A stretch of DNA of 64,000 nucleotides from a virus, in the IMG/VR virus record IMGVR_UViG_3300020198_000009, positions 16,430 to 80,429 of that record; one strand, 5' to 3'. A program made the position numbers and the translations under genes. This document shows, one piece after another, positions 42,917 through 63,140 of this stretch. The notes under the pieces are model-generated. The model was not told where the DNA came from. It saw only the letters and a program-made list of their open reading frames with translations, and did no database searches. The stretch's first letter is position 1. The number at the start of each line of letters is the position of its first letter.

Positions 42917-45900
42917 ATGCGCGCGCCAGCCGAGACCCACCAGGCGATGACCCGGGCGCTGGAAGCCGGCCTCAAGCAGGTATTCCCGGTTGCGGCCGGC
43001 AACCGCATGCTCGATCTGGTCGCGGTCCATGCCCCCGACCTGCCGGATCCCCATGACTGGAACGGCCAGAAGGACGCGGTCATGGATGGTAGGACCTGGG
43101 GCAGCCCACTGCGCGCCACCCTGGCGCTCAAGGATGCACAGGGCAAGGTGCTCGACCAGAAGGCCGTGAGGCTGGCCACCATACCGGCTCCGACCAATCG
43201 CCACACGTTCATCGTCGATGGCCGGGAGTACCAGGTCAACTACCAGCGCCGGCTGAAACCCGGGATCTACACCAAGGTCGATCGCACCGGCGCACCGGTG
43301 GCCGACTTCAACCTCGGACATGGCCGCAACTTCGCCGTCACGCTCGACCCGGAACGGAACCAGTTCCATCTGCGCCTGGGCAACGCCCACATCCCCCTGG
43401 GCCATGTCCTGGCTGGCCTGCGCGAATCGGGAGATCCCTCCCTGGGGCTGGGCAAGGCCTTCGAGCACCCGGCGGGCCCGGAGGAGACCGAGCGCGCCTT
43501 GCGGGAATTCTATGTCCAGACCCACCGCAACAAACCCATCCCTGCCGACCTGGCAGGCCTCAAGGCCGCCGTCCGCACCTGGTTCGACCACGCTACGCTC
43601 TCGCCCGAGACCACCCGGCTCACGGTCGGCGAATCCTACGGCCATGTCACCGACCAGGCGTTGCGGACTGCCGCGAGGCATGTCCTGGAAATCCACCGCG
43701 GCGATCGTCATCCGACCCACAAGGATCAGCTGGCTTACCAGGAGATCCACGGGGTCGAGGACTTCCTCAAGGAACGCCTGGTCAAGAACAAGCTGGGGCT
43801 GCACGGCCGGTTGCGCCAGACCCTCGATCGGGCCGACAAGCTCGCGGACCTCAACCTACCGGCGACCTTCGGGCCGTCAGTGCACCACTTCTTCACCCAG
43901 AGCTCGCTCTCGAACCATCCCATGCAGGTCAACCCGCTGGAAATGGCCGAGAACGCCCACAAGATCACCTCGATGGGCGAAGGCGGCATCGGAGACGCCA
44001 ACGCCATCCCGATCGAGGTCAGGAACATCCATCCATCCACGTTGGGCTTCATCGACCCGGTCCGCACGCCCGACAACGCCCATGCCGGCGTGGATGTCCG
44101 CACCACCGTGCGCTCCCGCAAGGTCGGGAACCAGCTGGCGATTCCCGTCCGCGATGCCAGGACCGGCCGGGAGGTCTTCAAGACCCCTGGCGAGCTGTTC
44201 GACACGCACGTCGCCCACGACAGGGAGCCCGCCGAGAACGGCGTGGTACGCGCCATCCACCAGGGCCATGTCGTCTGGGCAAAGCCAGAGCAGATAGACT
44301 ACCACCTCCCGACCGAGCACCAGTTCACGGTCAGTACGGCCCTGGTGCCCTTCATCCCCAACAGCCACGCCCACCGGGTGGCCATGGGCGCCAAGATGCT
44401 GGGCCAAGCCGTCAGTCTCGACGACCGCGAGGCGCCGATCGTGCGGACCGCCCATGCAAATACCGCGATCTCGGGCCTGTTGCCGCGCAGCCCGGTCGAC
44501 GGGACCGTGGCCACGATCGTGAACGGAGCCATCAAGATCCAGGACAAGGACGGCAAGAGTCACCTCGCGCACTATCCGCACGAGTTTCCGCTCAACGGCG
44601 GCTCGTTCCTGCATGCAGACCTGCATGTCAAGCCCGGCGACCGGGTCTCGCAAGGGCAGGTCCTCGGCGACTTGAACTTCACCCGCGACGGCAACCTTGC
44701 ACTTGGAAAAAATTTAACCGTTGCTTATCTGCCGTATCGTGGCCATAACTTCGAAGACGGCCTGGTGGTTACCGAACAGGGTGCCCGCAAGCTTACCAGC
44801 AGCCACCTGCATACCGAAGTCGCCCTCAAGGACGGCCGCAACGTCTACGATCTCAAGCAGTTCAAGGGCCACTTCCCCTCGACCTACACCCACGAGCAGC
44901 TCGGCAAACTCGATCCCCATGGCGTGGTACGCGTGGGCCAGGAGGTCGTCGAGGGCGACCCGCTGGTCGCGGGCCTGCGCAAGCGCGTGGTCGATCCCGA
45001 GCAGCTCATCCTGGGTAAGGCCCACAAGGGCCTCATGGAGCCCTACCGGGACGCCAGCCTGACCTGGGACAAGCCCTACGCCGGCAAGATCACGGCCGTA
45101 TCCAAGACCGGCGACCAAATAAAGGTGACCATCCAGGCCAAGGCGCCGCTCCAGTTGGCCGACAAAATCTCTAATTTGTACGGCGCGAAGGGCGTCGTGA
45201 CAACGATCATCCCCGACCACGAGGCGCCCCGGACAGCCAGCGGTGAGATCCCCGACGTCATCCAGAACTCGGCGGGCCTGATCAGCCGCATGAACAACGG
45301 CCAGCTCTACCACCTGACCGCCGCCAAGGCCGTCAAGGCCCTGGGGCTCGATCACATGGTCTTCCCGCAGTTCCTGGGCCAGGACGCCCACGAAGTGGTC
45401 TCGCGCCTGGCCGAAAAGGCCGGCATCGCCCCGGAAGAAGAGCTGTTCGACCCCAAGACCAATCGCAGTCTGGGTAAGGTGATGATCGGCCCGCAGTACA
45501 TGCTCAAGCTCTTCAAACAAGCCGAGACCGGCTTCTCGGCGCGGGCCGGCGGGCGTTATGACGTCGATCTGCGACCGGCCAAGGGCGGCGAGGAGGGGGC
45601 CAAGTCCATCGGCTACCTCGACGTCTTCGGGTTGCTCAGTCACGGCAGCCGTGGCCTGTTGCGCCAGGCGGCGACCACCAATGCCGAATTCAACCCCGAG
45701 GTCTTGCAAGCCATATGGCGGGGCCAGCCCCTGCCGCCCCCCAGGCCCACGTTTGCCTGGCGGAAGTTCGAGGCCATGTTGCGCGGGGCGGGCGTCAACG
45801 TCACCCAGGACGGCCACAAGCTGGTCATGCTGCCGATGACCGACCAGGACACCCTGCGAGTCTCGCAGGGCCAGATCCGCAAACCCCTGCTGGTCAACGC

Positions 45901-47206
45901 CAAGGAGGACCCTCGCACCGGCCTGCCCTTCCGGCCCGAAACGGGCGGTCTGTTCGATCACGAGTCCACCGGCGGCCTGGTCGGCAACAAGTGGTCGCAT
46001 ATCACGTTGCCCGAGCCCGTGGTGAGCCCGCTGTTCGCCCGGCCGGCCCGCATCCTGCTCGGAATGAGCCAGCAGGCTTTCGGTGAGACGATGGCCACCG
46101 AGGGCGGGGCGGGTATCGCCAAGCGCCTGGCCGGGATCGATCCGAAGACGCGCATCGCCGAACTCGGCGAGCGGCTCAAGACGACCAGCGCGGCGGCCAA
46201 GCGCGACCAGATCCACAAGCAGCTCAAGTACCTCAAGCCGCTGGCCGCCCACGGCATCAGCCCGGCCGACGCGTACGTCGTGCGCCATGTGCCGGTCATC
46301 CCTCCCGCGATGCGGCCCATCTACCCGGACGCCGACACCGGCAAGCTGGTCAACTCGGATGCCAACCTGCTCTACCAGCACCTGCTGCTCATCGGGGATC
46401 AGCTGGCCCACCACCAGCACGAGGGCGATCCCGACACCGTGCGCGAATTGCGCCTGGGGCTGCATGACGCCCTGGCCAAGGTGCAGGGCCTCGACCCGAC
46501 CACTGAATCCATGGGCAAGGGCTACGAGCCGCAGGGCTTCCTCAAGCTCATCACGGGCTCGCGCGCCAAGGAAGGCTTCTTCCAGAGTAAATTGCTCTCG
46601 CGGCGCCAGGACATCGCCGGCCGCGGGGTCATCACGCCCAATCCGGCGCTGGGTATCGACGAGCTGGGCTTGCCTGAGCCGATGGCCTGGAAGCTCTACC
46701 GCAACCATGTGGTGGGTGAGTTGACCCGGGCCGGCCTGCCGCTCGAAAGTATCGCCAAGCATGTCGAAGAGCAGACACCCCTGGCGCGCAAGGCCCTGCA
46801 AGCAACCATGGCCGACAATCCGGTGATCATGACCCGGGCGCCCAGCCTGCACCGCTTCAACCTCATGGCCTTCAAGCCGCAACTGACCAGCGGCAAGCAC
46901 ATCGAGGTTCCAAACCTGGTCGTCAAGGGCTTTAACGCTGACTTCGACGGTGACGCGGTCAACGTCCACATCCCCATCACCCCGGAGGCCAAGGCCGACG
47001 CCTGGCGCGTGCTGCCATCGAAGAACCTATTCTCGACGCTCAACAAGAGCCCGATGCACACGCCCAGCCAGGAGGTCACCATGGGGCTCTGGAAGCTCGG
47101 CCAGCCCAATGGTAAGGCCACCCGGACCTTCAAGAGCCGCGCCGAAGCCATCGCCGCCTACAAGAAGGGCGACATCGGCATCGCCGACCCGATCGAAATA
47201 GGTTGA
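42917..47206 (+). CDS. RNA polymerase beta / beta'-N fusion
   Basis: A 1429-residue fusion of a complete-looking beta subunit with the N-terminal half of beta' of a multisubunit RNA polymerase. Beta landmarks are a NPLEMAENAHKITSMGEGG Rif-pocket region (about residues 338-356), the IEVRNIHPSTLGFIDPVRTP block, YLPYRGHNFEDGLVV (about 603-617) and LADKISNLYGAKGVV (about 746-760) with both active-site lysines. Beta' landmarks are WSHITL (about 1025), AGRGVITPNP and the catalytic NADFDGD (1340-1346) that holds Mg2+. The beta' zinc ribbon near the start has no cysteines. The protein ends soon after PSQEVTMGLW, about where cyanobacterial RpoC1 ends. The remaining half is at 61290. The enzyme should transcribe phage genes. 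Confidence 0.95.
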   Translation: MRAPAETHQAMTRALEAGLKQVFPVAAGNRMLDLVAVHAPDLPDPHDWNGQKDAVMDGRTWGSPLRATLALKDAQGKVLDQKAVRLATIPAPTNRHTFIVDGREYQVNYQRRLKPGIYTKVDRTGAPVADFNLGHGRNFAVTLDPERNQFHLRLGNAHIPLGHVLAGLRESGDPSLGLGKAFEHPAGPEETERALREFYVQTHRNKPIPADLAGLKAAVRTWFDHATLSPETTRLTVGESYGHVTDQALRTAARHVLEIHRGDRHPTHKDQLAYQEIHGVEDFLKERLVKNKLGLHGRLRQTLDRADKLADLNLPATFGPSVHHFFTQSSLSNHPMQVNPLEMAENAHKITSMGEGGIGDANAIPIEVRNIHPSTLGFIDPVRTPDNAHAGVDVRTTVRSRKVGNQLAIPVRDARTGREVFKTPGELFDTHVAHDREPAENGVVRAIHQGHVVWAKPEQIDYHLPTEHQFTVSTALVPFIPNSHAHRVAMGAKMLGQAVSLDDREAPIVRTAHANTAISGLLPRSPVDGTVATIVNGAIKIQDKDGKSHLAHYPHEFPLNGGSFLHADLHVKPGDRVSQGQVLGDLNFTRDGNLALGKNLTVAYLPYRGHNFEDGLVVTEQGARKLTSSHLHTEVALKDGRNVYDLKQFKGHFPSTYTHEQLGKLDPHGVVRVGQEVVEGDPLVAGLRKRVVDPEQLILGKAHKGLMEPYRDASLTWDKPYAGKITAVSKTGDQIKVTIQAKAPLQLADKISNLYGAKGVVTTIIPDHEAPRTASGEIPDVIQNSAGLISRMNNGQLYHLTAAKAVKALGLDHMVFPQFLGQDAHEVVSRLAEKAGIAPEEELFDPKTNRSLGKVMIGPQYMLKLFKQAETGFSARAGGRYDVDLRPAKGGEEGAKSIGYLDVFGLLSHGSRGLLRQAATTNAEFNPEVLQAIWRGQPLPPPRPTFAWRKFEAMLRGAGVNVTQDGHKLVMLPMTDQDTLRVSQGQIRKPLLVNAKEDPRTGLPFRPETGGLFDHESTGGLVGNKWSHITLPEPVVSPLFARPARILLGMSQQAFGETMATEGGAGIAKRLAGIDPKTRIAELGERLKTTSAAAKRDQIHKQLKYLKPLAAHGISPADAYVVRHVPVIPPAMRPIYPDADTGKLVNSDANLLYQHLLLIGDQLAHHQHEGDPDTVRELRLGLHDALAKVQGLDPTTESMGKGYEPQGFLKLITGSRAKEGFFQSKLLSRRQDIAGRGVITPNPALGIDELGLPEPMAWKLYRNHVVGELTRAGLPLESIAKHVEEQTPLARKALQATMADNPVIMTRAPSLHRFNLMAFKPQLTSGKHIEVPNLVVKGFNADFDGDAVNVHIPITPEAKADAWRVLPSKNLFSTLNKSPMHTPSQEVTMGLWKLGQPNGKATRTFKSRAEAIAAYKKGDIGIADPIEIG

Positions 47207-47938: not shown

Positions 47939-47950
47939 GGCGAAGGGGCC

Positions 47951-48861: not shown

Positions 48862-48875
48862 ACCTCTATATTATG
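48862..48875 (-). promoter_or_regulatory. Minus-strand -10 directly before a start codon
   Basis: CATAATATAGAGGT runs straight into the ATG. Either CATAAT or TAATAT can serve as the -10, leaving six to eight bases before the start codon. The message is leaderless or has an extremely short leader containing GAGG. Confidence 0.5.
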
Positions 48876-48891
48876 TGCGAAGCATCGTCCC

Positions 48892-48967
48892 GGGCACCGC
48901 AGAGGACGGTAATCGCCGAGGGCGAAGGGCGTCCGAGGATCGCCGCCCGCAGGCGGCAGCCGAGGAG
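48892..48967 (+). repeat. Dispersed intergenic repeat, copy 2
   Basis: Homologous to 33215-33290. It contains the hairpin GCCGCC-CGCA-GGCGGC (48942-48957), whose stem bases differ from copy 1 in a compensatory way around the same CGCA loop. An upstream nested stem (GGACG/CGTCC around TCGCC/GGCGA) is seen only in this copy. It lies between divergent genes. Confidence 0.6.
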
Positions 48968-48975
48968 TCGTCCTT

Positions 48976-48994
48976 TACAATCATGGTAGGACCA
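48976..48994 (+). promoter_or_regulatory. Promoter TACAAT + TGGTAGGACCA
   Basis: TACAAT (48976-48981) is followed two bases later by a perfect TGGTAGGACCA (48984-48994), then AGGAG and the ATG of the zinc protein. It heads the long plus-strand operon with the tandem kinase. Confidence 0.7.
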
Positions 48995-49008
48995 TCAGGA
49001 GCGCGCGC

Positions 49009-49260
49009 ATGCCCAAACCCCACGCCGATCAGTACAACCTCTTCGGAGGCGTCGGTGCCGTAACCGAGACCCAGGTGGCCGTAGCCGCGGGCACGACCCT
49101 GGTCGACTGTTACCTCAAGTGCGACTGCGGCCGTTGCTCGGAACAGCTGCGCCTCCCCGAGACAATCATGGGCAATCGCCCACAGGCCCTGCTCCATGCC
49201 CAGCGCCAGACCGGCTGGACCGACGTCTGCCCCGGCTGCCAGAAGAAGAAGGCGACATGA
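49009..49260 (+). CDS. Small zinc-ribbon protein before tandem kinase
   Basis: An 83-residue protein with CDCGRC in the centre and CPGC near the end, a likely zinc ribbon. CAGGAG precedes the ATG. Its stop overlaps the kinase start (ATGA). No nuclease or polymerase motif is seen. Confidence 0.65.
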   Translation: MPKPHADQYNLFGGVGAVTETQVAVAAGTTLVDCYLKCDCGRCSEQLRLPETIMGNRPQALLHAQRQTGWTDVCPGCQKKKAT

Positions 49261-51302: not shown

Positions 51303-51303
51303 C

Positions 51304-52374: not shown

Positions 52375-52378
52375 CGCC

Positions 52379-52756
52379 ATGGGCCCCAACCCGAACCTCG
52401 CGCGCCTCGCGACCAATGCCCCGAGATTGGGCGTCAACCCGCAGAGCGCCATCGCGACCGCCGCTCAAGGCATGGTGCCCCAGCTCAAGCACCCCGCCTA
52501 CCGGCTGGGCCAGTACATCGCCAAGAACCATCCAGCCGACGCGGCCTGGATGCGGGGCCTGCCTGGGATCAAGCAGGGCGCGTTCAAACCGCCGGTCCCG
52601 TTGCCCATGCCGACCCCAACTCCCGGGCCGTTCGCACGAGTCGTGCAATCATTCAACGTTCCCCGTGCGACCATGCCGACCCCAACTCCCGCGCCCTCGC
52701 CGGGCCTATCCGGTCCCGCAGAAAGCGTGAGTATTCCCCGGATACCTTCGCCGTAG
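52379..52756 (+). CDS. Small Pro-rich protein with MPTPTP repeats
   Basis: A 125-residue protein starting five bases after the upstream stop. The second half contains two copies of MPTPTPxP, encoded by the 19-base direct repeat ATGCCGACCCCAACTCCCG at 52607 and 52673. It is likely disordered. No domain recognised. Confidence 0.55.
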   Translation: MGPNPNLARLATNAPRLGVNPQSAIATAAQGMVPQLKHPAYRLGQYIAKNHPADAAWMRGLPGIKQGAFKPPVPLPMPTPTPGPFARVVQSFNVPRATMPTPTPAPSPGLSGPAESVSIPRIPSP

Positions 52757-52758
52757 CC

Positions 52759-52980
52759 ATGTTCGACTCCGACATGGAGCGCCACCTCTCTGGCTGGCCG
52801 GCCTGGGAGGAAGAAGCCGAGCGCGACGAGTCGTTGCTCGATGCGGCCATCCATCTCGGGGGCGATCGGCTGGTGCGCTTCAACGGTGAGGGGTACTACC
52901 CGGTGGAGTTCGTTGGGGGCGACAAGAACTATGCGGTGTTGCGGGTACCGCGACGGGCGATTATGGGGCTGCATGTGTGA
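52759..52980 (+). CDS. Small unknown protein
   Basis: A 73-residue acidic protein beginning MFDSDMERHLSGWPAW, with short beta strands at its end (YAVLRVPRRAIMGLHV). It starts three bases after the previous stop and overlaps the next tagged gene through TGATG. Confidence 0.55.
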   Translation: MFDSDMERHLSGWPAWEEEAERDESLLDAAIHLGGDRLVRFNGEGYYPVEFVGGDKNYAVLRVPRRAIMGLHV

Positions 52981-53453
52981 TGACGCCCTACCGGATGTAT
53001 ATGCAAAAGGTGGCCATCGACCAGCGCTTGGCCACTCGGATTGCTGGGGCGTTGAACCGCGAGATCGGCCATTTAGCGGCAAGGGACGTCAAGCCACACC
53101 AATTGAGCGGGTGGAGAAGGATCCTGTTCACGCTGGACGGACAGGCATGGCGCAATCCCAAAAAGCTGCCGCGCTCGTCCGTCTGGACACCACACCTGGC
53201 CATGACCAAGAAACCGGAAAAACTGCTCGCCCTGGCACGACATGGCCGACGCGCCGGACACAGCGAGGTCGGCAACAGCCCGATTTACGAGCGGGTCGTG
53301 CGACAGCGTGATCTCGAACGCGCTCACCTCGGAGTGCTCAAATTGCTCCCGAGCGGACGCGGCTTTTTGCCCTTGCGCCCGGAATCGGATTTTCGCGCCG
53401 CCCGAGCACTACAGGATTTCGGCATCCGCGTTACGGCCAACACTTATACGTAA
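52980..53453 (+). CDS. Tagged basic protein (MTPYRMYM)
   Basis: A 157-residue, strongly basic protein starting MTPYRMYMQKVAIDQ at an ATG overlapping the upstream TGA. A GTG three bases earlier is possible but would put one residue before the tag. High Arg/Lys content suggests nucleic-acid contact. No domain recognised. Confidence 0.65.
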   Translation: MTPYRMYMQKVAIDQRLATRIAGALNREIGHLAARDVKPHQLSGWRRILFTLDGQAWRNPKKLPRSSVWTPHLAMTKKPEKLLALARHGRRAGHSEVGNSPIYERVVRQRDLERAHLGVLKLLPSGRGFLPLRPESDFRAARALQDFGIRVTANTYT

Positions 53454-53469
53454 GGACAGGCATCGAAAC

Positions 53470-54627
53470 ATGAACCCCTATGCACTCTATATGTCCCTGG
53501 TTAAGGAGGCCGCGGCCTTCACGCGCCTGGATGCCGCAGCCTTCGCCAAGCAATTCGGCCATCTGGACGCCGAGAGCCTTGCGCACGAACTGAGCAAGCT
53601 GGGCGATCGGCACGGCGCCAGGAGCGTCCAGTTCGGCTTCCATCCGGATATGCTCAATCAACAGCCCATCCCCCCGCACCATCGCGCCAAGCTGGACCAA
53701 GCCTACAAGACCTGGCAGGGCCAGCAGCCGGGCGCCCCGAACCAGGGAGCGGCAGCTGGCGGGGCGGGTGGCGGAGCCAAGAAGCCACCCGGAGGATCGT
53801 CGTCGGCCGGCAGCGGGGGCTTCCACTACGGCGGGGGAGGCTTTCACTACGGCGGTAGCAAGATCTGGGAAGAATACGACGACATCTGGCGCCAGCACCA
53901 GGCACGGCGGGCGGCGTCCGAGGCGGAAATCCAGCGCGTGCGGCTCATGCTCAACCTCGGCGCCCTGGGGACAGGACTCGCCGCCAGTCTGACTCTCGGC
54001 GCCCTGGAGGCTCGCGACGCCGCCAAGGCGCTGGCGGCACGCCGCAAAGCACTTCGCAATATCGGCCTGGGTGTTGGCGCTACGGCCGCGGCCGGCCTTG
54101 GAGCGCTCGGCATCGCCCATGCCCTGCATCGCCCGACCGAGAAAGCCGCCGCGGGATCGCTCTCGGGCTGGTTGCAGAACCTGGGAACCGCTCGCGCCCT
54201 AGGACGTCTGGCCAGACGCCAGCGTCAGACCGCCAAGAGCATGGGGCAGATCCTCGGGCAGCGCAGGAACCTGCAAGACATCCAGGAGATCAACAAGGGC
54301 CTGGACGAACTCGGCGCCAACCTGGGGACTCTGGCCAAACGGCCCATCGACCTCCCTCGAATCCCCGAGGAGTTCGCGCGCGCCCTTCCCCCGATGCGCA
54401 TCCAGCCCAAGGCCGTCCCGCCCAGGGAAAGCCTGGTTGATCCGAGACTCCTGGGCGGTGGCCCCCGTGGCGATACGGCCGCCCAGGCCCTGGCACACGG
54501 GCAGCGGTGGGGAGTCCCGGGAGCCAGGCCGCGAACCATCGGCAATCAGACCTTCCATACCCCGCTCCCGATAGCCCCTCCTGCCAGCATCGCCGGACTC
54601 CCGCCCAAGTTCGGCCGCCTGGCGTAA
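53470..54627 (+). CDS. Tagged protein with Gly-rich linker and membrane helices
   Basis: A 385-residue protein starting MNPYALYMSLVKEAA. A helical region follows, then a Gly/Ser/His/Tyr-rich linker (FHYGGGGFHYGG, about residues 118-135). Two hydrophobic helices come next (ALGTGLAASLTLGALEA, then IGLGVGATAAAGLGALGIAH), and a Pro/Arg-rich C-terminus. It resembles an ejection-type internal protein in composition only. Confidence 0.65.
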   Translation: MNPYALYMSLVKEAAAFTRLDAAAFAKQFGHLDAESLAHELSKLGDRHGARSVQFGFHPDMLNQQPIPPHHRAKLDQAYKTWQGQQPGAPNQGAAAGGAGGGAKKPPGGSSSAGSGGFHYGGGGFHYGGSKIWEEYDDIWRQHQARRAASEAEIQRVRLMLNLGALGTGLAASLTLGALEARDAAKALAARRKALRNIGLGVGATAAAGLGALGIAHALHRPTEKAAAGSLSGWLQNLGTARALGRLARRQRQTAKSMGQILGQRRNLQDIQEINKGLDELGANLGTLAKRPIDLPRIPEEFARALPPMRIQPKAVPPRESLVDPRLLGGGPRGDTAAQALAHGQRWGVPGARPRTIGNQTFHTPLPIAPPASIAGLPPKFGRLA

Positions 54628-54630
54628 CCC

Positions 54631-57546
54631 ATGGACAAGACCGCCCGGCCTCAATGGCCCAACCTCCCAGACCGGCCCCTCATGCCGCCGGGCCTGAAAA
54701 CCCGGGCCAGCCACTGGTTCAATCGCGAGATCGATCAGGCCTGGCGACCCGAGCCCGAGGGATTCTCCCTGGGCCTCCTGCGGCGTTTCGATCCGGAGTT
54801 CCACCATGCCGTCAATCAGGCGGCCCGCGCCCAGGGTCTCACCCCGGAGCAGGTCCTCGAACGCGCCCGCCAGCGGGTCAGGGCCAAGCAGGCGGCGAGG
54901 CTCCCGGAAGCAATCCTGGCCCTGCGACGACTTGCCGCAAACAGGCGCCTGTCACTCGCAACCGCACTCCCCGAAGGCCGTTCCTTTCGCGAGCGACTCC
55001 TTGGGCTGGGCGACGTCCCGCACCGGCCGGAATCAGCCGGAGCCGGGGTCTTCCAGCAAGACCTTCCCGATCACGTGATCCTGCACCACAACGCGGGCGG
55101 CTCGACGGTCCGGGGCGGGGTCAACATCAACGGGTCGGATTTGACGCGGGCGCTCGACGACAAGTGGCACTTCGCACAGATCATGGAGCATGGGACCGGC
55201 GGCGGGCCCGGCCTGCCAGACAGCATTCCGAAGACCGAGTTGTTCGAGACCGCCCTGGCGCGACATGGCGGGGATCTCGAAAAGCTCAAGGCGGAGTTCG
55301 GCGACTTCGTCGTCAAGCCACGCTCGGGAGCGCGCACCAGGCGCGATGCACTCATCAATAGCGACAACCTCAAGGATCCCCGCCTGTCGCGGGCCGCCCA
55401 GGAGCCACGCGGACATGTCATCCAGCCCAAGCTCGACATCGTTGACGAATACCGCGTCCACCTCCTGAACAACCACCCGTTCACGGCCGCCAGGCGCTAC
55501 CTCACAAACACGGGGCCATTGGCCAGATCCACTCACGAGGTGGCACGCGCCCTGAACGAGGGCGCCATCGTGCCGCTGGTCGGACCCGCACGCAAGGAAG
55601 TCCAGGAATTTGCCCGCCAAGCCACCGCGCACATCGGGCGCAGCCCGGAAGGCGGCCAGTATCTGGGCACGCGAGACGAAAACGTCCACCACGCCCTCGA
55701 CATCGCCAGGTTGCGCGACGGCTCCCTGCGAGTCATCGAATCGAACCCCACCCCGGGCACCCTGATGAACCCGATCGTGAGCCGCAAGTTGCACCACCTG
55801 GCGACAGGCCGACTGGATCATGGCACCTTGGCCATGGCGGGCCTGGCAGGAGTGGCCGGGGCGGGCCTGGCCCTGCGCTGGCTCGCCAGGAAACGGCGCG
55901 CCGCTCGCGCCCTGGGGCAGGCCAGAGCCGCCCTCGCCGGGACGGTTCAACTCGCATCGGCCAAGCACGCCGCCCTCAAGCCCAGCGCCAAGCTCAAGGA
56001 CTACCAGCAGGAAGCCGTCGATCGCGTCGCCGACAACGACGGCTCCTTGCTCATCGCGCATCCGATGGGCTCGGGAAAAACCATGACGTCGGTGGCCGCC
56101 GTCGAGAGGCTGCGCGAACTGGGCAAGGCCAAACGCACCCTGGCCATCGTGCCGGCCGCCCTGCGCGACAACATGATCGACCGGGGGGTCCACCGTTTCT
56201 CCGATCAAAAAGCCATCCGCCTGGGATCCAAGGGAGAAGCCGGGTCCTACCACGTCGGCCAGCCATTGCCCGATGCCAACTACTACATCACCAGCATCGA
56301 GCAGTTCCGCCAGGACCCCAATGCCTACCTCAAGACCACCCGGGCCGACACCATCGTGGTAGACGAACTGCACAAGGCCCGCGACGACAGCACGCGCAAT
56401 TACGATGCCCTGCTGGCCGCCCGGCCGCATGTCCGCAACTTCATCGGCCTGACCGGCACCCCGGTCATGAACCACCCGCGCGACATCGTGCCGGTCCTGG
56501 ATCTGGTAACCAACCGCAAGCACCGCCTGGGCAACGTGCGGCAATTCGATCAGGTCTTCACCCGGGAGGAAGTCAAGCACCACGGACCCTTCGGCTGGCT
56601 GGGCCACGGCCCGACCTCCAAGGAAAAACACCTGATCAACACCGACTACCTCCAAGAAGAGCTGCGCAAGCACATCCACTACGTCGAGCAGGAAGACGTC
56701 GGGCAACTACCCAAGAAGACGATCGTCGACGTCGAGGTCCCGATGAGCCACTACCAGGAAAAGCTCCACCGTGCCGCGATGGACCGCTCGGGCTTGAGCC
56801 CCATCGACCGCTGGCGCATCGAGCACAACCTGCCGGTCAACCAGCGCCTGGCCTCATTCTACCTGGCCCGCCTCCAGCAAGCCCGCCAGGCCAGCAACGC
56901 CATCCACCCCTTCGACAAGGACTACACGCCCTTGCGATCGGCCGAGGAGACCCCCAAGGTCAAGAAGCTGCTCGACGACGTCGAAGCCCACATCCGCGAG
57001 AATCCCAAGCACCAGGCCACCATCAGCACGATGTTCGTGCGCGGCGGGGCTGACCAGCTCTCGGCGGGGTTGTCCCGGCGCGGCATCGCCCACGGCTGGT
57101 TCCTGGGATCGGGTTACCAGAAGCGCGCCGATCGCGACCTGCACGTCAAGGACTACCTGGCGGGCAAGCGGCGGGTGATGATCGTCAACCAGGCCGGCGC
57201 CGAGGGATTGAACCTCAACAACACCACCTTCCATGCGACCTTGGACCCCCACTACAATCCAGCGACAATAGCCCAGATGGAGGGGAGGGGGCTGCGCGCG
57301 GACAACCCGGCTCCCGAGATCCCGGTCCACCGCTACAAGTCGGTGCTGCCTCGGGCTCGAATCGCCGGCATCCCCATCAGCCCCAAGCTGCACGGCACCG
57401 ACGAGTGGATCTACGGCATGATGGACCGCAAGGAGAAGCTCAACGACGAGCTGCTCGGGCTCCTGCGCGACCGGCCCAAACAGAAGGCGGCCATGGACAA
57501 GGAGGCGCTCAACGCGCTGATGAAGCGGCTGGCCTACACGGTATAA
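54631..57546 (+). CDS. ATP-grasp-like / SNF2-type helicase fusion
   Basis: A 971-residue protein. Residues about 220-375 look like an ATP-grasp fold (FGDFVVKPRSGARTRRDA, a central DEYRVHLL, then LRVIESNPTPGT). A hydrophobic Gly-rich segment (about 392-412) could be membrane-inserting. The C-terminal half is an SF2/SNF2 ATPase: Walker A MGSGKT (479-484), VVDELHKARD (motif II), GLTGTPVMNHP (motif III), NQAGAEGLNL (motif V) and QMEGRGLRADN (motif VI). SNF2 enzymes move along or remodel DNA-protein complexes and can displace RNA polymerase. No MTPY tag is present. The combination with ATP-grasp is unusual. Confidence 0.8.
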   Translation: MDKTARPQWPNLPDRPLMPPGLKTRASHWFNREIDQAWRPEPEGFSLGLLRRFDPEFHHAVNQAARAQGLTPEQVLERARQRVRAKQAARLPEAILALRRLAANRRLSLATALPEGRSFRERLLGLGDVPHRPESAGAGVFQQDLPDHVILHHNAGGSTVRGGVNINGSDLTRALDDKWHFAQIMEHGTGGGPGLPDSIPKTELFETALARHGGDLEKLKAEFGDFVVKPRSGARTRRDALINSDNLKDPRLSRAAQEPRGHVIQPKLDIVDEYRVHLLNNHPFTAARRYLTNTGPLARSTHEVARALNEGAIVPLVGPARKEVQEFARQATAHIGRSPEGGQYLGTRDENVHHALDIARLRDGSLRVIESNPTPGTLMNPIVSRKLHHLATGRLDHGTLAMAGLAGVAGAGLALRWLARKRRAARALGQARAALAGTVQLASAKHAALKPSAKLKDYQQEAVDRVADNDGSLLIAHPMGSGKTMTSVAAVERLRELGKAKRTLAIVPAALRDNMIDRGVHRFSDQKAIRLGSKGEAGSYHVGQPLPDANYYITSIEQFRQDPNAYLKTTRADTIVVDELHKARDDSTRNYDALLAARPHVRNFIGLTGTPVMNHPRDIVPVLDLVTNRKHRLGNVRQFDQVFTREEVKHHGPFGWLGHGPTSKEKHLINTDYLQEELRKHIHYVEQEDVGQLPKKTIVDVEVPMSHYQEKLHRAAMDRSGLSPIDRWRIEHNLPVNQRLASFYLARLQQARQASNAIHPFDKDYTPLRSAEETPKVKKLLDDVEAHIRENPKHQATISTMFVRGGADQLSAGLSRRGIAHGWFLGSGYQKRADRDLHVKDYLAGKRRVMIVNQAGAEGLNLNNTTFHATLDPHYNPATIAQMEGRGLRADNPAPEIPVHRYKSVLPRARIAGIPISPKLHGTDEWIYGMMDRKEKLNDELLGLLRDRPKQKAAMDKEALNALMKRLAYTV

Positions 57547-57570
57547 CGCGGGCTGCCACCCTATCCGGGC

Positions 57571-57582
57571 ACTACCGGTAGT
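57571..57582. repeat. 12-bp perfect palindrome
   Basis: ACTACCGGTAGT lies about 25 bases after the SNF2 stop, followed by TTTCC. It may be an operator for the diguanylate cyclase gene or a weak terminator; 180 bases of non-coding sequence follow. Confidence 0.35.
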
Positions 57583-57729
57583 TTCCACCACGACTTGACC
57601 CGGTTGGCATCAGAGTCGAACAGGACATGGTGAAATATCCCGAAACAACGCTCGATATCCTGGTCCATGTCCTGAGCTTAGCACGATTAGCGGCCCAACA
57701 AGAGACCAGCACCCAACCGGAACTGTCGC

Positions 57730-57747
57730 TATCATGCCACCAGGAGG
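57730..57747 (+). promoter_or_regulatory. Promoter -10 and RBS of diguanylate cyclase gene
   Basis: TATCAT (57730-57735) matches the TATCATGC seen before the beta'-C gene at 61269. It is followed seven bases later by a perfect AGGAGG (57742-57747), eight bases before the ATG. No TGGTAGGACCA is present here. Confidence 0.45.
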
Positions 57748-57755
57748 ACGTCTTC

Positions 57756-58643
57756 ATGCTGCGAGACGGCCTGGTACTCCTGGTCGGAAACGACCACGAT
57801 CTCGGCACCACCCTGGCCAACGAAGGCTACCAGCTCTTGCGCGCGGATTCGGGCGCCGAAGCGATGGGTCTGATCGGCCGCATCGTCCCCGACCTGGTGC
57901 TCTTGGACTTCGATCTGCCGGGCATGGGCCCCATCGAGACCCTCGAAGCCCTGCGCCAGGGCCCGCACACCCAGCGCGTGGGAGTGGTCTGCCTGGGGGA
58001 CGTGCCGGGCGATCTGGCCAGGGCCTTCGCCGCGGGCGCCGACGAGTTCCTCATCTCGGTCCCCGAGCCAGGAGAGTTGCTGGCGCGGGTCGACCACCTG
58101 ATCGCCAAGAAGCGAGAGCTCGACACCCTCTACTTCCTGGCCACCCATGACGGCCTGACCGGCGCGCTCAACCGCAAGGCCTTCCTGGAGGCGGTCGACG
58201 GCGCCCTGACGCACCGCGCCGGCCGGGCCCTGTCGGTCGTCATGTTCGATCTCGACCATTTCAAAATCATCAACGACACCCAAGGCCATGGGGCGGGCGA
58301 CGCGGCGCTGCGGCATGTCGCCGACCTGTTCGATCACCACACGCGCGGCTCTGACATTCTGGGACGACTGGGAGGAGAGGAGTTCGCCTTCCTGCTGCCG
58401 GAAACCGACCTGATGGGGGCCCTGACGGCCGCCAGGCGCCTGCGATCCCTGCTGGAAGTCAACCCGGTGCCCTTCTCCGACCTCTTCCTGTCGGCCAGTT
58501 TCGGGGCGAGCAGTGCGATCAAGGACGATCTTCCGGGAAGCCTGCTTGCACGGTCCGACCAGGCACTGTATCATGCCAAGGAGGCGGGCCGAAACCTGGT
58601 CGCCTTCGAGCGGGATGGCGTCCTGGGACTCTGCGAGAGATAG
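57756..58643 (+). CDS. Diguanylate cyclase with receiver-like domain
   Basis: A 295-residue protein predicted to make cyclic di-GMP from two GTP. Residues 1-125 form a receiver-like domain with LLDFDLPGM (D51 candidate), but the usual N-terminal acid pair is N-D and the conserved lysine is lost (FLISVPEP), so phosphorylation is doubtful. Residues 130-290 are a full GGDEF domain: THDGLTGALNRKAF, DLDHFKIINDTQGHGAGD, the active site GGEEF (206-210) and the inhibitory-site RxxD (R197-D200). The ATG is chosen for its AGGAGG; an earlier start lacks one. A cyclic-di-GMP enzyme in a phage may steer host motility, biofilm or stress state. Confidence 0.92.
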   Translation: MLRDGLVLLVGNDHDLGTTLANEGYQLLRADSGAEAMGLIGRIVPDLVLLDFDLPGMGPIETLEALRQGPHTQRVGVVCLGDVPGDLARAFAAGADEFLISVPEPGELLARVDHLIAKKRELDTLYFLATHDGLTGALNRKAFLEAVDGALTHRAGRALSVVMFDLDHFKIINDTQGHGAGDAALRHVADLFDHHTRGSDILGRLGGEEFAFLLPETDLMGALTAARRLRSLLEVNPVPFSDLFLSASFGASSAIKDDLPGSLLARSDQALYHAKEAGRNLVAFERDGVLGLCER

Positions 58644-58648
58644 GACCA
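58641..58648 (+). promoter_or_regulatory. TAGGACCA element before HNH gene
   Basis: TAGGACCA overlaps the stop codon of the cyclase gene and precedes the TTG of the HNH gene by one base, as at 9755. No good -10 box is visible, so it may only provide the AGGA ribosome binding site. Confidence 0.4.
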
Positions 58649-58649
58649 A

Positions 58650-59054
58650 TTGGAGCGCAAAAAGCCCTTGCGCAGCGATCCGGCCAAGCTTCGGGCCTGG
58701 CGGGAGCGCTCGCAGCCGTTGCGATCCGGAATGGTCCTACCAGGCCAGATCCGGCTCAAAACCAAGAAAAGGAAGGGTTTCAGGGAGCGAGCCCCCGGGG
58801 TCTGGGCGGCGCTAGTGACACGCTCGGGCGGTCACTGCGAACTGCGGGCCTCGTCGGCTTGCACGGGCATCGGCCAGGACGCGCACCACCTGGTCGGTCG
58901 GGGCGTGGGCGGACCCGACACCCTGGAAAATACGGCCATGTCTTGCCGGCCCTGTAACGAGTACGTGGAAACCATCGGCCAGCTGGCCTACGACCGGGGC
59001 TGGAAGATCCGCAGCACCTCCGAGCGTGGCCGCGCTCTCTTGCGAAAGGAGTGA
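58650..59054 (+). CDS. HNH endonuclease
   Basis: A 134-residue protein with an HNH core: GGHCELRAS, the histidine pair in GQDAHHLVGRG, TLENTAMSCRPCN with Asn and a zinc-type CxxC. These enzymes nick or cut DNA; in phages they include homing and packaging nucleases. The start is TTG, using AGGA in TAGGACCA. The N-terminus is strongly basic. A reversed TGGTCCTACCA lies inside the gene at 58732. Confidence 0.8.
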   Translation: MERKKPLRSDPAKLRAWRERSQPLRSGMVLPGQIRLKTKKRKGFRERAPGVWAALVTRSGGHCELRASSACTGIGQDAHHLVGRGVGGPDTLENTAMSCRPCNEYVETIGQLAYDRGWKIRSTSERGRALLRKE

Positions 59055-59308
59055 CCCTTGTGGCATCGCCCGTCCGCGCCAGTACGTGCCTCAACCGTCG
59101 CAGCCAGCCCAAGGAGAGGTATCCGAGCCGTTGTGAAGCGGTGATCGCCAAGCGCGAAAAAGGCCTGGACGACGATCCACGCCTCCAGCCGTATCTGTGC
59201 CCGGATTGCGCGGACTGGCACCTGGGTCATGGCCCGGTCTCGAAGAAGCCGCCCCGGTACTTCAAGGAACGGGTCACCAGCGTCCTGTGCCTGTGCGGGA
59301 CCTGCTAG
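59051..59308 (+). CDS. Small Cys-rich protein
   Basis: An 85-residue protein starting at a GTG that overlaps the HNH stop (GTGA). It contains LCPDCADWHLGH and a C-terminal LCLCGTC, giving a possible zinc ribbon. An internal start nine bases on is also possible. Confidence 0.55.
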   Translation: MTLVASPVRASTCLNRRSQPKERYPSRCEAVIAKREKGLDDDPRLQPYLCPDCADWHLGHGPVSKKPPRYFKERVTSVLCLCGTC

Positions 59309-59568
59309 TGCTAGAAAAAATCACGATGGAGCGCCATAGCGGCCCGGGCCACGCCGTCGGTCACGCCTGGCTCGGCCCCTACGCGGTCCTCTGGACCATC
59401 GAGCCGGGTCGGCAGGGACGGTACCACATCGAGTTCCACAATCCCGACAAACAGCGTCAGCCCCATCTCGCACGACTCGCCCAGGCGAACGCCGAGGCCG
59501 TCCTCGCCGAGCTGATGAGCACCTTGCAGTCCCGCTACCCGTACCTGTTCCCGGTGCCGACCCCATGA
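59308..59568 (+). CDS. Small unknown protein
   Basis: An 86-residue protein starting at GTG within TAGTG; an ATG at 59326 is an alternative. Aromatic, His-rich strands (HAWLGPYAVLWTIEPG) precede a helix. It overlaps the next gene by ATGA. Unrecognised. Confidence 0.5.
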   Translation: MLEKITMERHSGPGHAVGHAWLGPYAVLWTIEPGRQGRYHIEFHNPDKQRQPHLARLAQANAEAVLAELMSTLQSRYPYLFPVPTP

Positions 59569-59831
59569 ACGAAGTCTGGGATCTGCGGGTACTCGTGCCG
59601 GCCGAGCGGATGGTCGTGGCTCGCGCCCTGGGTGATTGCCCGGGCTGGGGCACCCGGGAGGCCTTCGCCCGGACCCCCGAGGAGCTGGCGGCCCTCCAGC
59701 GATTGGCGACCCGGACCCGGCGGCGAGCACCCATCTTCATCACCGGCGACCAGGTATTCTTCCGCATCGATCCCGACGCCCTCAAGACGTACCTGGCCAG
59801 CAAGCAACCAAAGCGGCGCCGGGCATCATGA
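59565..59831 (+). CDS. Small basic unknown protein
   Basis: An 88-residue basic protein (ends KQPKRRRAS) joined to both neighbours by ATGA overlaps. No domain is recognised. Confidence 0.55.
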   Translation: MNEVWDLRVLVPAERMVVARALGDCPGWGTREAFARTPEELAALQRLATRTRRRAPIFITGDQVFFRIDPDALKTYLASKQPKRRRAS

Positions 59832-60358
59832 GCGACGACTTCGATCGGGAAATCGGCCTGTGGCTGCGCGACATCACCAGCCCCGACGAGCTGGTCGCGG
59901 CCCTCAAGCGCATCTTCGGGGACTACCGGGCCGAAGTCAAGGAGGTCCAGGAGCGCATCGCCAAGCCGCTCTCGACCGACAACCCGAACCTCCTCTCGGA
60001 AGAGCTCGACTGGTTCGCCGCCCACCTGCACCGCATGGGTAGTCTTTGCGCGGATGCCGATGCGTTGCTGGACAAATCACAAAAGTACTTCCTGGTGCCT
60101 ACCGGGCAGATGCGACCCTGCACCTACGAGAACGGCGACCCCTACGAGGAGCGGGGACGCAAGGCCTATGCCAAGGTTTCCGAAGCGGACCGAAAAGTGG
60201 AGCTCGATGCCCATGTGGCAGCCTTCCGGCGTCTGCGCAACGAGTACCAGCTCATCTGCGAGGTCCTGCGCAGCCGGCTGATCCTGGGCCAGAAGATCCT
60301 CGATCGGCTCGGCAAGGAAGCCCAGGCCGCCGGCTATCAGGCCGGGCGGGGGCGCTAG
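59828..60358 (+). CDS. Helical unknown protein
   Basis: A 176-residue, highly charged helical protein with coiled-coil potential at residues 25-45 and 140-165. It starts at ATGA overlap. The operon is otherwise nuclease/zinc proteins, which gives no clear function. Confidence 0.55.
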   Translation: MSDDFDREIGLWLRDITSPDELVAALKRIFGDYRAEVKEVQERIAKPLSTDNPNLLSEELDWFAAHLHRMGSLCADADALLDKSQKYFLVPTGQMRPCTYENGDPYEERGRKAYAKVSEADRKVELDAHVAAFRRLRNEYQLICEVLRSRLILGQKILDRLGKEAQAAGYQAGRGR

Positions 60359-60393
60359 GCGTTACGGACTTCGCCGTAACGACATGATTCAAA

Positions 60394-60822
60394 ATGACCG
60401 ACACCGAGCTCTGCGACTACCTCAAGCAGGCCTTGCGCTACCTCCGGTCCTGGTTTCGGGCCCTCGGCTACCCGCTGCCCGCCATCAAGCTCGTGGTCAG
60501 ACCGATTCGCCCGCGCCCCAAACCCGACGGCCGGCGCACCGTCGGCTACTGGTACCGGCCGGAGAGGGGTATCCACAAGATCGTCGTGGCCTCGGGCCTC
60601 AACTGGCTCACGGCCCTGGAAGTGCTGGTCCATGAATGCTGCCATGCCGCGACCAACTCGGCCGGTCATGTCCGCGCCTTCGGGGCAGTCGCCCGGTCCA
60701 TCGGCCTGGACCCCGACCACGAGGCCGGCTTCGCAATCGTCAGGGCCTCGCCGGCCCTCTCGACTCGCCTGGTCCTGCTGCATGATCGGAAGCTGAAAGG
60801 CAAGCTGCGACGCACGGCCTGA
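60394..60822 (+). CDS. SprT/zincin-like metallopeptidase
   Basis: A 142-residue protein with the zinc signature HECCH (residues 80-84) and a third histidine at 92 (AGHVRAFG), matching a short zincin/SprT-like core. It begins with a helical segment and ends basic (KLKGKLRRTA). SprT-type proteases can cut DNA-protein crosslinks; a role in clearing host proteins or in virion maturation is also possible. The ATG has a weak site (GATTCAAA). Confidence 0.8.
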   Translation: MTDTELCDYLKQALRYLRSWFRALGYPLPAIKLVVRPIRPRPKPDGRRTVGYWYRPERGIHKIVVASGLNWLTALEVLVHECCHAATNSAGHVRAFGAVARSIGLDPDHEAGFAIVRASPALSTRLVLLHDRKLKGKLRRTA

Positions 60823-60866
60823 ACGCTTGGGCGGGATCGCTATGATCCCGGTGAGGCCTGCTGCCC

Positions 60867-61109
60867 ATGAAAGAGCCAAGCGCCCGGACTTATTGCTTCC
60901 TCCTGCGCCTGACGGGCGCGGAGGCCTACGCCCTGCGGGACGTGGTACGCACCGGCCGACTGGCCGCCAAGGTGGCCGACTGGGGCGCCAAGCACAACGC
61001 CGAGCGCAAGGTCGAGATCGTCATGGAATCCGAGCAGGCCCTGCGCAACCTGGTCGACACCCTCGGGGTGCGCCTGGGCAAGAAGATCTCCTACAGCGAA
61101 TACGCCTGA
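60867..61109 (+). CDS. Small unknown protein
   Basis: An 80-residue alpha/beta protein (TYCFLLRLTGAEAYALRD, then VEIVMESEQALRNLVDTLG), ferredoxin-like in pattern. It lies about 45 bases after the peptidase and precedes the 180-base region upstream of the beta'-C gene. Confidence 0.55.
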   Translation: MKEPSARTYCFLLRLTGAEAYALRDVVRTGRLAAKVADWGAKHNAERKVEIVMESEQALRNLVDTLGVRLGKKISYSEYA

Positions 61110-61167
61110 TGTCCCAGAAAACGGGCGATTTCATGTGGCAGGAAACAACCCTGTTTCGGCTTCTCGC

Positions 61168-61254
61168 TCCCGATCGGGCCCGGCTTCACGTGTATACGCG
61201 GACATGCTCACGTATCTTCACGTAGAGATCGGACGCTCAATCCCGATCGGGCCC
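61168..61254. repeat. Paired CCCGATCGGG palindromes upstream of beta'-C
   Basis: TCCCGATCGGGCCC occurs twice (61168-61181 and 61241-61254), each with a ten-base perfect palindrome, 73 bases apart. Between them CACGT appears three times. The layout is operator-like and stands before the promoter of the split polymerase gene. Confidence 0.5.
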
Positions 61255-61268
61255 AACCAGCCAGGGCT

Positions 61269-61287
61269 TATCATGCTGGTAGGACCA
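61269..61287 (+). promoter_or_regulatory. Promoter TATCAT + TGGTAGGACCA for beta'-C gene
   Basis: TATCAT (61269-61274) is followed two bases later by a perfect TGGTAGGACCA (61277-61287). The ATG of the polymerase half is two bases beyond, so AGGA in the element is the only ribosome binding site. Confidence 0.65.
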
Positions 61288-61289
61288 CC

Positions 61290-63140
61290 ATGCGCACGAC
61301 GGTCGGGCACCTGCTCCTGTCGGCCGGCCTTCCCGAAGGTATCACGGCCCCCTCGCTGCTCGACAAGAAGGGCCTGGGGCAGATGCTGTCCGAGATCGCC
61401 CAGAAGCACCCCGATCGCTACGGCGAGGTGGCCAACCACGTCAAGGACGTCGGTAACCGCGTGGCCTACGAGACCGGGACGAGCTTCACGCTAGCCGATC
61501 TCAAGCCCGACACGAAGCTGCGGGACGCGGCCTTCGCGGCCCACCACCAGGAGCTCAGGCGCCTGATCGATCAGGCCATCAAGACCCCGGCCATCCAGCG
61601 TAGCCCGGCCTTCGCACGCCAGAAGGCCGAGCTCTACGCCAAGATAGAACAGCACGTCCAGCAAGGCGTCGCCGACCGGATCAAGACCCAGCCCAACAAC
61701 CTCACGGCCTGGATCGCCTCTGGCGCCCGGGGCGACACCCACATGGCCCGCCAGATGCTGGCCATGAGCGGCCTGAACGTCGACGTCGCCGGCAAGCTCG
61801 CCCCCGACATCGCCAAGCGCAGCTTTTCGGAAGGTCTCTCGCCCATGGATTTCCACATCCATGCCACCGGAGCCCGCCGCGGGGTCGTCAACACCTACAC
61901 CTCGGTCCGCGAGCCCGGAGCCTTTGCCAAGGAATTGAACACCATCGCCGCGGACATGGTGGTCACCCAGCTCGATTGCGGCACGACGCGCGGCCGCGAG
62001 TTGCCTCCGGCCGACCCGGATGTCCTGGACCGGCTGCTGGCCCGCGAGATGCCAGGGGTTGGCCACCGCAACGACCTGGTCGACGATCGGTTGCGGCAAC
62101 TGGCCATCAAAACACACCTCGCCACCCTGCCGGTGCGATCGCCGCTGACCTGCGCAGCGCGCGAGGGGGTCTGTAGCCGCTGTTACGGACAGAACGAAGA
62201 AGGGCGGATTCCGTCAATCGGCGAGCACGTGGGGCTGCGGGCCTCGACCAGTATTACCGAACCGCTTACGCAGCTCGCCTTGCAGAGCAAACACTCCGGC
62301 GGCGTGGTGGGTGCCGGCAAGAGCCCCTTCCACCAGATCCTGGACGTGATGCACGCCCCCAGGGAACTGGCCGGCGCCGCGGTGCTGGCGCGCCACGCGG
62401 GCCAGGTTACCCGCATCGACAAGGCGCCATCCGGCGGCTGGCAAGTCCATGTCGACGGCACACCCCACTACCTGGCCCCTGGCCTCGATCCCATCGTCTC
62501 GGTCGGCCAGCGGCTCACCCGGGGGGTAGCGCTCTCTGGTGGCCAGCCCCACCCGGCCCAGGTCGTCAGCCACCTGGGCATGGAGCGCGGCCGCGAGCAC
62601 TTCGCCGACACCTTGCGGGGCCTGTACGGCGACGCGGGCATCCGCGGGCACGGCAAAATCTTCGAGACCGTCTCGCGCGCGGTGCTCAACCTGGGCCAGG
62701 TGGTCCAGCCCGGCAAGCACGACTGGATCCCGGGCGAGATAGTCCACTGGAACGCCGTGGCCCCGCACCTGGCCGAGCAACGGGCTACCTGGGTGCCTCT
62801 CGACCAGGCCGAGGGGAGAATTCTCCACGGCGAGGCCGGCCACCTGGGGCCGTACGAGACCTTGACCAACAAACACATCGCGGCTTTACGGGCCCGCAAG
62901 ATCGGCCAGGTGCCGGTCTTTAGCAAGGACGATCTGGTGGTGCGGCCGATCATGCTGGGCACCGAGCGCGCGGCGCTGCACAAGGGGGACTGGCTGGCCA
63001 ACCTGGGCTTCCGGTTCCTGGGGCAGACCTTCAGGGAGAATGCCGCCACCGGGGCGACTGCTTCACTGCATGGCTGGAATCCAATCCCCTCGTTGGCCCA
63101 TGGGGCTGAGTTCGGCAAGGGCGAGGGCGGAAGGTATTGA
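61290..63140 (+). CDS. RNA polymerase beta' C-terminal half
   Basis: A 616-residue protein carrying the second half of beta'. It starts MRTTVGHLLLSAGLPEG, matching the TTVGR block just beyond the natural RpoC1/RpoC2 junction. It holds the bridge helix (GARRG, 194-198), the zinc site C230, C288, C295, C298 (CGTTRG, then CAAREGVCSRC) and the trigger loop EPLTQLALQSKHSGG (324-338). In the trigger loop the usual Arg next to Met is Q332, while the catalytic-helper His is kept as H335. Together with 42917 it could form a complete catalytic core. It has its own promoter. After it the tagged tandem genes begin. Confidence 0.95.
   Translation: MRTTVGHLLLSAGLPEGITAPSLLDKKGLGQMLSEIAQKHPDRYGEVANHVKDVGNRVAYETGTSFTLADLKPDTKLRDAAFAAHHQELRRLIDQAIKTPAIQRSPAFARQKAELYAKIEQHVQQGVADRIKTQPNNLTAWIASGARGDTHMARQMLAMSGLNVDVAGKLAPDIAKRSFSEGLSPMDFHIHATGARRGVVNTYTSVREPGAFAKELNTIAADMVVTQLDCGTTRGRELPPADPDVLDRLLAREMPGVGHRNDLVDDRLRQLAIKTHLATLPVRSPLTCAAREGVCSRCYGQNEEGRIPSIGEHVGLRASTSITEPLTQLALQSKHSGGVVGAGKSPFHQILDVMHAPRELAGAAVLARHAGQVTRIDKAPSGGWQVHVDGTPHYLAPGLDPIVSVGQRLTRGVALSGGQPHPAQVVSHLGMERGREHFADTLRGLYGDAGIRGHGKIFETVSRAVLNLGQVVQPGKHDWIPGEIVHWNAVAPHLAEQRATWVPLDQAEGRILHGEAGHLGPYETLTNKHIAALRARKIGQVPVFSKDDLVVRPIMLGTERAALHKGDWLANLGFRFLGQTFRENAATGATASLHGWNPIPSLAHGAEFGKGEGGRY

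What the first reader, a model, noticed from the sequence alone, without database searches (positions are those of the whole stretch)
57756..58643. Phage-borne diguanylate cyclase with a degenerate receiver domain
The GGDEF domain keeps GGEEF, the RxxD inhibitory site and metal/GTP motifs. The receiver lost its lysine and one N-terminal acid, so activity may not depend on host phosphorylation. Cyclic di-GMP synthesis by a lytic-type phage would be an unusual way to control host behaviour or defence.
Basis: partly seen in the sequence, partly recalled or inferred. Interest (0 to 1): 0.8.

Follow-up and report, generated by a model that had tools for sequence, protein, structure and literature searches.

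The report
Phage diguanylate cyclase with degenerate receiver
A large tailed phage that makes its own RNA polymerase also carries a complete-looking enzyme for the bacterial signal molecule cyclic di-GMP, whose usual phosphorylation switch has decayed; phage copies of such enzymes are already known, so this is an unusual variant rather than a new kind of gene.

Summary
ORF 57756-58643 (+, 295 aa, strong ribosome site) encodes a receiver (Rec)-GGDEF protein: Pfam GGDEF 1.8e-36, Response_reg 2.4e-10, AlphaFold2 pLDDT 94.6, best solved matches WspR, PleD and DgcR. All inspected GGDEF catalytic residues and the RxxD inhibitory site are kept. The Rec is more decayed than stated: both N-terminal acids, the Thr/Ser, the Lys and its Pro are replaced and helix 1 is about five residues short; only phosphoacceptor Asp51 remains.

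It is a phage gene, not contamination. It lies between a phage helicase and RNA-polymerase genes of an Arash-like myovirus, with typical phage codon usage.

Most likely it is a phosphorylation-independent, product-inhibited diguanylate cyclase made in the infected cell; what the c-di-GMP is for is unknown.

It is not unprecedented. Bacillus phages SP-15 and G and Bordetella phages carry GGDEF proteins, and one IMG/VR scan found at least 343 GGDEF matches. Within this phage lineage it is sporadic: one of 84 kin records has a GGDEF, an unrelated membrane type. 'Lytic-type' is unproven, because the record is an 80-kb fragment.

The parts
57756..58643 (+). Diguanylate cyclase ORF, 295 aa, Rec-GGDEF
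   Evidence: ORF and ribosome site; PF00990 1.8e-36 and PF00072 2.4e-10; AlphaFold2 pLDDT 94.6; best solved matches WspR, PleD, DgcR
57756..58109 (+). Degenerate receiver domain (residues 1 to about 118): acid pair replaced by G11-N12, Thr/Ser by G81, Lys by S101, Pro by V102; only phosphoacceptor D51 kept; alpha1 about 5 residues short
   Evidence: alignment with intact-Rec homologues; full Rec fold in the model
58068..58148 (+). Stalk helix (residues 105-131) joining Rec to GGDEF; 30 residues from the KP position to DxLT, 7 fewer than PleD
   Evidence: model helix 105-130; linker count
58140..58595 (+). GGDEF catalytic domain (residues 129-280) with DGLT, FDLDHFK, GHGAGD, RxxD (R197/D200), GGEEF (206-210) and AKEAGRN
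   Evidence: PF00990 match; motif positions; PleD alignment
57547..57755 (+). 209-base non-coding gap, G+C 0.57, with ribosome site and GCTATCAT (57729-57736), which may be a weak form of the phage's CTATAAT promoter element
   Evidence: gap table; motif scan; no sigma-70 consensus promoter found. The promoter reading is inference
54631..57546 (+). Phage SNF2/DEAD-type helicase (971 aa) just upstream; homologue sits next to RNA polymerase in phage Arash
   Evidence: PHROG 62 2.3e-56; Arash match 27%
58650..59054 (+). HNH endonuclease-like ORF just downstream
   Evidence: PHROG 740 3.3e-11; Pfam HNH 6.8e-4, below Pfam's cut-off
42917..47206 (+). Fused beta/beta' N-part of the phage multisubunit RNA polymerase; defines kinship with Arash and Vibrio phages D69/D148/D181
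   Evidence: 33% over full length to Arash; alignment
61290..63140 (+). beta' C-part of the phage RNA polymerase, 2.6 kb downstream of the DGC
   Evidence: 28-29% over full length to Arash and Vibrio phages

Best explanation
The ORF encodes an active, phosphorylation-independent diguanylate cyclase of the small Rec-GGDEF type, carried as a cargo gene by an Arash-like RNA-polymerase-encoding myovirus. Shown by sequence and model: a complete GGDEF active site with its RxxD product-inhibition site, a stalk helix, a folded Rec lacking every switch residue except the acceptor Asp, and placement among phage genes of the same strand. Inferred: the Rec serves only as a dimerisation and adaptor module, much as the second Rec of PleD does, so two GTP-loaded GGDEF domains meet without a histidine kinase; product binding at RxxD caps the output. 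Inferred with less confidence: it is transcribed during infection from its own promoter and raises c-di-GMP in the infected cell, moving the host towards a non-motile, surface-altered state that favours phage production or progeny.
For: GGDEF and Rec matches; catalytic residues invariant across 27 aligned sequences; motif positions; model pLDDT 94.6 with complete Rec and GGDEF; Foldseek best matches WspR, PleD, DgcR. PleD matches best through its second Rec plus GGDEF (query 45-283), where the acceptor Asp reads N and the Lys reads R. Linker 30 residues, 7 fewer than PleD and the same as L127 and L135, fitting the 7-residue rule of Rec-GGDEF linkers (PMC8041772). Strong ribosome site and 209-base gap. 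Flanks are phage genes; codon usage rank 30 of 70.
Against: No activity data. Asp51 is retained, so weak phosphorylation cannot be excluded. No c-di-GMP effector or phosphodiesterase family appeared among the scanned phage proteins and Rfam found nothing in the window, so any target must be in the host or unrecognised. The gene is absent from nearly all kin, so it is not essential to this phage type. Expression timing is unknown.
Confidence: 0.6

Rival explanations
1. The degenerate Rec is a regulated adaptor: a phage or host protein or a small ligand, not phosphate, binds it and switches the cyclase on at a chosen time or place.
For: The Rec is fully folded (block-mean pLDDT 86 or more) and has not been lost, though a free GGDEF would be simpler; linker length follows the 7-residue rule expected for signal relay (PMC8041772).
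Against: No partner gene is recognisable; neighbours are an HNH protein and small unknown proteins. A dimerisation role explains the retained fold equally well.
Confidence: 0.2
2. A host histidine kinase still phosphorylates Asp51 and switches the cyclase on.
For: Asp51 in LLDFDLPGM is kept.
Against: The acid pair, Thr/Ser, Lys and Pro are all replaced, whereas the Rec-GGDEF proteins of three IMG/VR contigs keep the acid pair, Asp, Thr/Ser and Lys.
Confidence: 0.1
3. It is not an enzyme in practice but a c-di-GMP binding protein or sink, locked by its RxxD site.
For: RxxD at the right spacing; some GGDEF proteins act as receptors (general knowledge).
Against: GGEEF and every inspected substrate and metal residue are kept, unlike typical receptor-type GGDEFs.
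Confidence: 0.06
4. Host contamination, assembly join or a passenger gene with no role for the phage.
For: Absent from nearly all kin; an HNH gene lies next door; no other copy in IMG/VR by exact 26-base match.
Against: Phage RNA-polymerase parts lie on both sides, same strand, 10.5 kb upstream and 2.6 kb downstream; helicase is adjacent; codon usage and G+C typical of the contig. A 295-aa frame with all catalytic residues kept while diverged to about 36-40% full-length identity from anything found argues for maintained function.
Confidence: 0.04

Closest known systems
DgcR of Leptospira biflexa (Rec-GGDEF prototype, PMC8041772; PDB 6zxb)
   Same: Same two-domain plan and size (298 vs 295 aa), stalk helix, GGDEF, RxxD; Foldseek TM 0.67 over 291 columns, 29% identity.
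   Different: DgcR has a working Rec activated by (pseudo)phosphorylation; here the switch residues are gone, and the carrier is a phage.
PleD of Caulobacter (PDB 1w25, 2wb4)
   Same: Best sequence match among solved structures (2e-37), mostly through PleD's second, degenerate Rec plus GGDEF.
   Different: PleD has a preceding functional Rec that is phosphorylated; this protein has only the degenerate one. Linker 7 residues shorter.
WspR (PDB 3bre, 3i5a)
   Same: Best Foldseek match (1.4e-27); single Rec plus GGDEF.
   Different: WspR's Rec is phosphorylated by a kinase (general knowledge) and its stalk is longer (group 4 in PMC8041772).
Diguanylate cyclase genes of Bacillus phages SP-15 and G (gp350), and Bordetella phages CN1/FP1
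   Same: GGDEF proteins on phage genomes.
   Different: In these only the GGDEF part matches (aligned columns 154-186); no degenerate Rec was seen in them; unrelated phage types.
GGDEF protein of IMG/VR kin contig G024 (L088/L230)
   Same: A GGDEF gene in a phage with the same split RNA polymerase.
   Different: 292 aa with a hydrophobic N-terminal part and no Rec, different neighbours: separate acquisition.

Membership tests
Diguanylate cyclases (GGDEF family, PF00990) | GGDEF domain over curated cut-off | tested here: met
   125.8 bits against cut-off 23.8
Diguanylate cyclases (GGDEF family, PF00990) | GG(D/E)EF signature plus metal and GTP residues | tested here: met
   GGEEF 206-210; D165, N173, D182, E209, K275, R279 kept
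Diguanylate cyclases (GGDEF family, PF00990) | RxxD inhibitory site 5 residues before GGDEF (common, not universal) | tested here: met
   R197-G-S-D200, then ILGRL, then GGEEF
Diguanylate cyclases (GGDEF family, PF00990) | Makes c-di-GMP from GTP | not testable with these tools
   needs an enzyme assay
Rec-GGDEF response regulators (WspR/DgcR class) | N-terminal receiver fold joined by a stalk helix to GGDEF | tested here: met
   model elements; PF00072; Foldseek
Rec-GGDEF response regulators (WspR/DgcR class) | Working phosphorylation switch: acid pair, Asp, Thr/Ser, Lys | tested here: not met
   only Asp51 kept
Rec-GGDEF response regulators (WspR/DgcR class) | Linker lengths in steps of 7 | tested here: met
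   30 residues, PleD 37, homologues 30, 37, 44; a few homologues give 26 or 38
Arash-like phages (split RNA polymerase) | beta/beta'N fusion and separate beta'C homologous over full length | tested here: met
   33% and 28% to Arash; beta/beta'N found in 84 and beta'C in 78 of the kin loci compared
Virulent (lytic) phage | No integrase or repressor in a complete genome | tested here: inconclusive
   No integrase family among scanned proteins, but only an 80-kb fragment is held and one 812-aa protein across the window start was not scanned

The most novel reading that the evidence does not exclude
The phage uses its own cyclase, freed from host kinases and gated by a phage- or infection-specific partner of the degenerate Rec, to force a c-di-GMP state (loss of motility, altered surface) that blocks superinfection or protects the infected cell until lysis.
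Probability: 0.12. Interest if true: 0.65.

Novelty: new variant of a known kind. Interest (0 to 1): 0.38.

Why it matters
If active, it would give a phage a way to set host c-di-GMP that the host's kinases cannot switch off. That makes a simple question testable: does raising c-di-GMP during infection help a large phage that has its own transcription machinery? It also offers a naturally single, degenerate-Rec cyclase for studying how such adaptor domains hold a cyclase in its active dimer.

Tried and rejected
Host contamination or assembly join: rejected by flanking kin RNA-polymerase genes and codon usage. A c-di-GMP riboswitch or other known RNA: none in the window. Phage-borne c-di-GMP effectors, phosphodiesterases or a histidine kinase: none among the scanned proteins at E 1e-3. 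Defence-system genes next door: none. Close relatives by single RNA-polymerase or helicase sequences in IMG/VR: none; an alignment query then found 310. A second copy of this very gene in IMG/VR: no exact 26-base match. Origin of the gene by a GGDEF tree: unresolved, most forks poorly supported. A sigma-70 promoter upstream: none found. The idea that the stalk residues favour the active register (E at -11, L at -10) was dropped as weak, because homologue L089, whose Rec keeps its acid pair, Asp, Thr and Lys, also has Leu at -10.

Full report
Observation. ORF 57756-58643 on the + strand encodes 295 aa. The frame is open from 57627, but ATG 57756 has a strong ribosome site and the Rec similarity begins there. 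Pfam finds GGDEF (1.8e-36, residues 129-280) and Response_reg (2.4e-10, residues 16-112); NCBIfam's best matches are the PleD model and TIGR00254. AlphaFold2 with a 27-sequence alignment gives mean pLDDT 94.6 and a complete Rec, a stalk helix at 105-130 and a complete GGDEF domain. Best solved folds are WspR, PleD and DgcR.

Catalytic part. FDLDHFK (164-170), GHGAGD (177-182), RGSD (197-200), GGEEF (206-210) and AKEAGRN (274-280) are present; the key residues are invariant or nearly so among the 27 sequences. RxxD sits five residues before GGEEF, as in PleD. Everything that can be read from sequence says active, product-inhibited cyclase.

Receiver part. Against homologues with an intact Rec, the acid pair reads Gly11-Asn12, the Thr/Ser is Gly81, the Lys is Ser101, the next Pro is Val102, helix alpha1 is about five residues short and the beta4-alpha4 loop two short. 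Only Asp51 remains. The Rec-GGDEF proteins of three IMG/VR contigs, by contrast, keep the switch residues. PleD's second Rec is a known parallel: in the alignment its acceptor position reads Asn and its Lys position Arg, and that Rec plus the GGDEF domain is the stretch that matches best. The linker from the KP position to DxLT is 30 residues, 7 fewer than PleD's 37 and equal to homologues L127 and L135. This fits the 7-residue steps described for Rec-GGDEF linkers (PMC8041772), though a few homologues (26, 38) do not obey it.

Setting. The window is part of an 80,429-base IMG/VR virus record without end repeats. It carries a tail sheath, baseplate protein, large terminase and head protease, a sigma-70-like protein, methyltransferases and a glucosaminidase, and a split multisubunit RNA polymerase: a beta/beta'N fusion (42917-47206) and a beta'C part (61290-63140). 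Full-length relatives of both are in Salmonella phage Arash (181 kb) and Vibrio phages D69, D148 and D181 (187 kb). An alignment query found 310 IMG/VR relatives, the best 80 of which were kept. In most kin the two RNA-polymerase genes lie within a few kb; here 14 kb separate them, and the cyclase, the helicase and several small genes lie in that stretch. Codon usage of the cyclase ranks 30th of 70 genes. Contamination is therefore very unlikely.

Distribution. A GGDEF search of 84 kin records found one more, in a 199-kb contig, a 292-aa protein with a hydrophobic N-terminus and no Rec: a separate gain. About 20 of those kin records are 150 kb or longer; the rest are fragments, where absence means little. 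In annotated phages GGDEF occurs in Bacillus phage G, SP-15 (PMC5977210), Bordetella phages and others, but no phage record matches 80% of this protein, and no viral model in BFVD aligns over both domains convincingly. One IMG/VR scan found 343 GGDEF-encoding stretches, a lower bound because only two peptide patterns were scanned; some are probably prophage or host-edge fragments. Of 58 of their proteins 3 carry a Response_reg domain. The nearest cellular proteins share about 36% over the full length, 40% over residues 33-282 at best, or up to 49% over GGDEF alone, and a GGDEF tree does not place the gene.

Mechanism. Best reading (0.6): a phosphorylation-independent cyclase whose Rec only helps dimerise, expressed during infection, capped by product inhibition. 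The upstream gap of 209 bases at G+C 0.57 holds GCTATCAT about 20 bases before the ATG, resembling a CTATAAT element found in other gaps of this phage; this is a weak hint of its own start site. What the c-di-GMP does is inference: in E. coli a cyclase controls the surface glycan that phage N4 uses (PMC8669472), which shows that c-di-GMP can decide phage infection; earlier authors proposed biofilm or gene-transfer effects for viral cyclases (PMC7785012). No phage-borne effector or riboswitch was found, so any target is probably host-borne.

Verdict. Real, correctly located, phage-borne, probably active, with a degenerate Rec that is notable among the phage cyclases seen here. Not a new class: a new variant of phage-borne diguanylate cyclase.

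Noticed in passing
26692-26973(-), 27460-27699(-), 31164-31832(-), 39994, 41456, 42078, 42508, 52980, 53470, 63192, 63970 (+), internal copy 51730, plus 48861(-): Thirteen frames carry the same leader, consensus M(T/D/N/S)PYxxY(M/L/Q), most at a predicted start codon. It looks like a shared targeting or packaging tag for virion proteins; it was not seen in nine kin loci checked. The cyclase lacks it.
   Followed up: partly
24034-24013(-), 16808-16787(-), 5503, 18373, 31880(-), 33201(-), 61269-61286: Promoter-like element CTATAATTc(N2-5)TGGTAGGACC in gaps before genes: CTATAAT in 6 upstream gaps against 0.17 expected; TGGTAGGACC with up to 1 mismatch 14 times against 2.4 expected. Possibly the start signal of the phage's own RNA polymerase.
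   Followed up: partly
58733-58742 (-): A TGGTAGGACC copy on the minus strand just downstream of the cyclase, and TAGGACCA right after its stop; purpose unclear.
   Followed up: no
47207-61289: The beta/beta'N and beta'C genes of the RNA polymerase, near each other in most kin, are separated here by 14 kb of tag-bearing, helicase, cyclase and small genes.
   Followed up: partly
49257-51302: 681-aa protein that seems to have two kinase-like halves (weak Pkinase match, 3.8e-4, below cut-off).
   Followed up: no
60394-60822: 142-aa protein with a VHECCHAATN stretch that might be a metallopeptidase-like site; only a PHROG of unknown function matches.
   Followed up: no
54631-57546, first 450 aa: The helicase has a long N-terminal extension without any Pfam match and outside the part matched by the Arash homologue.
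   Followed up: no
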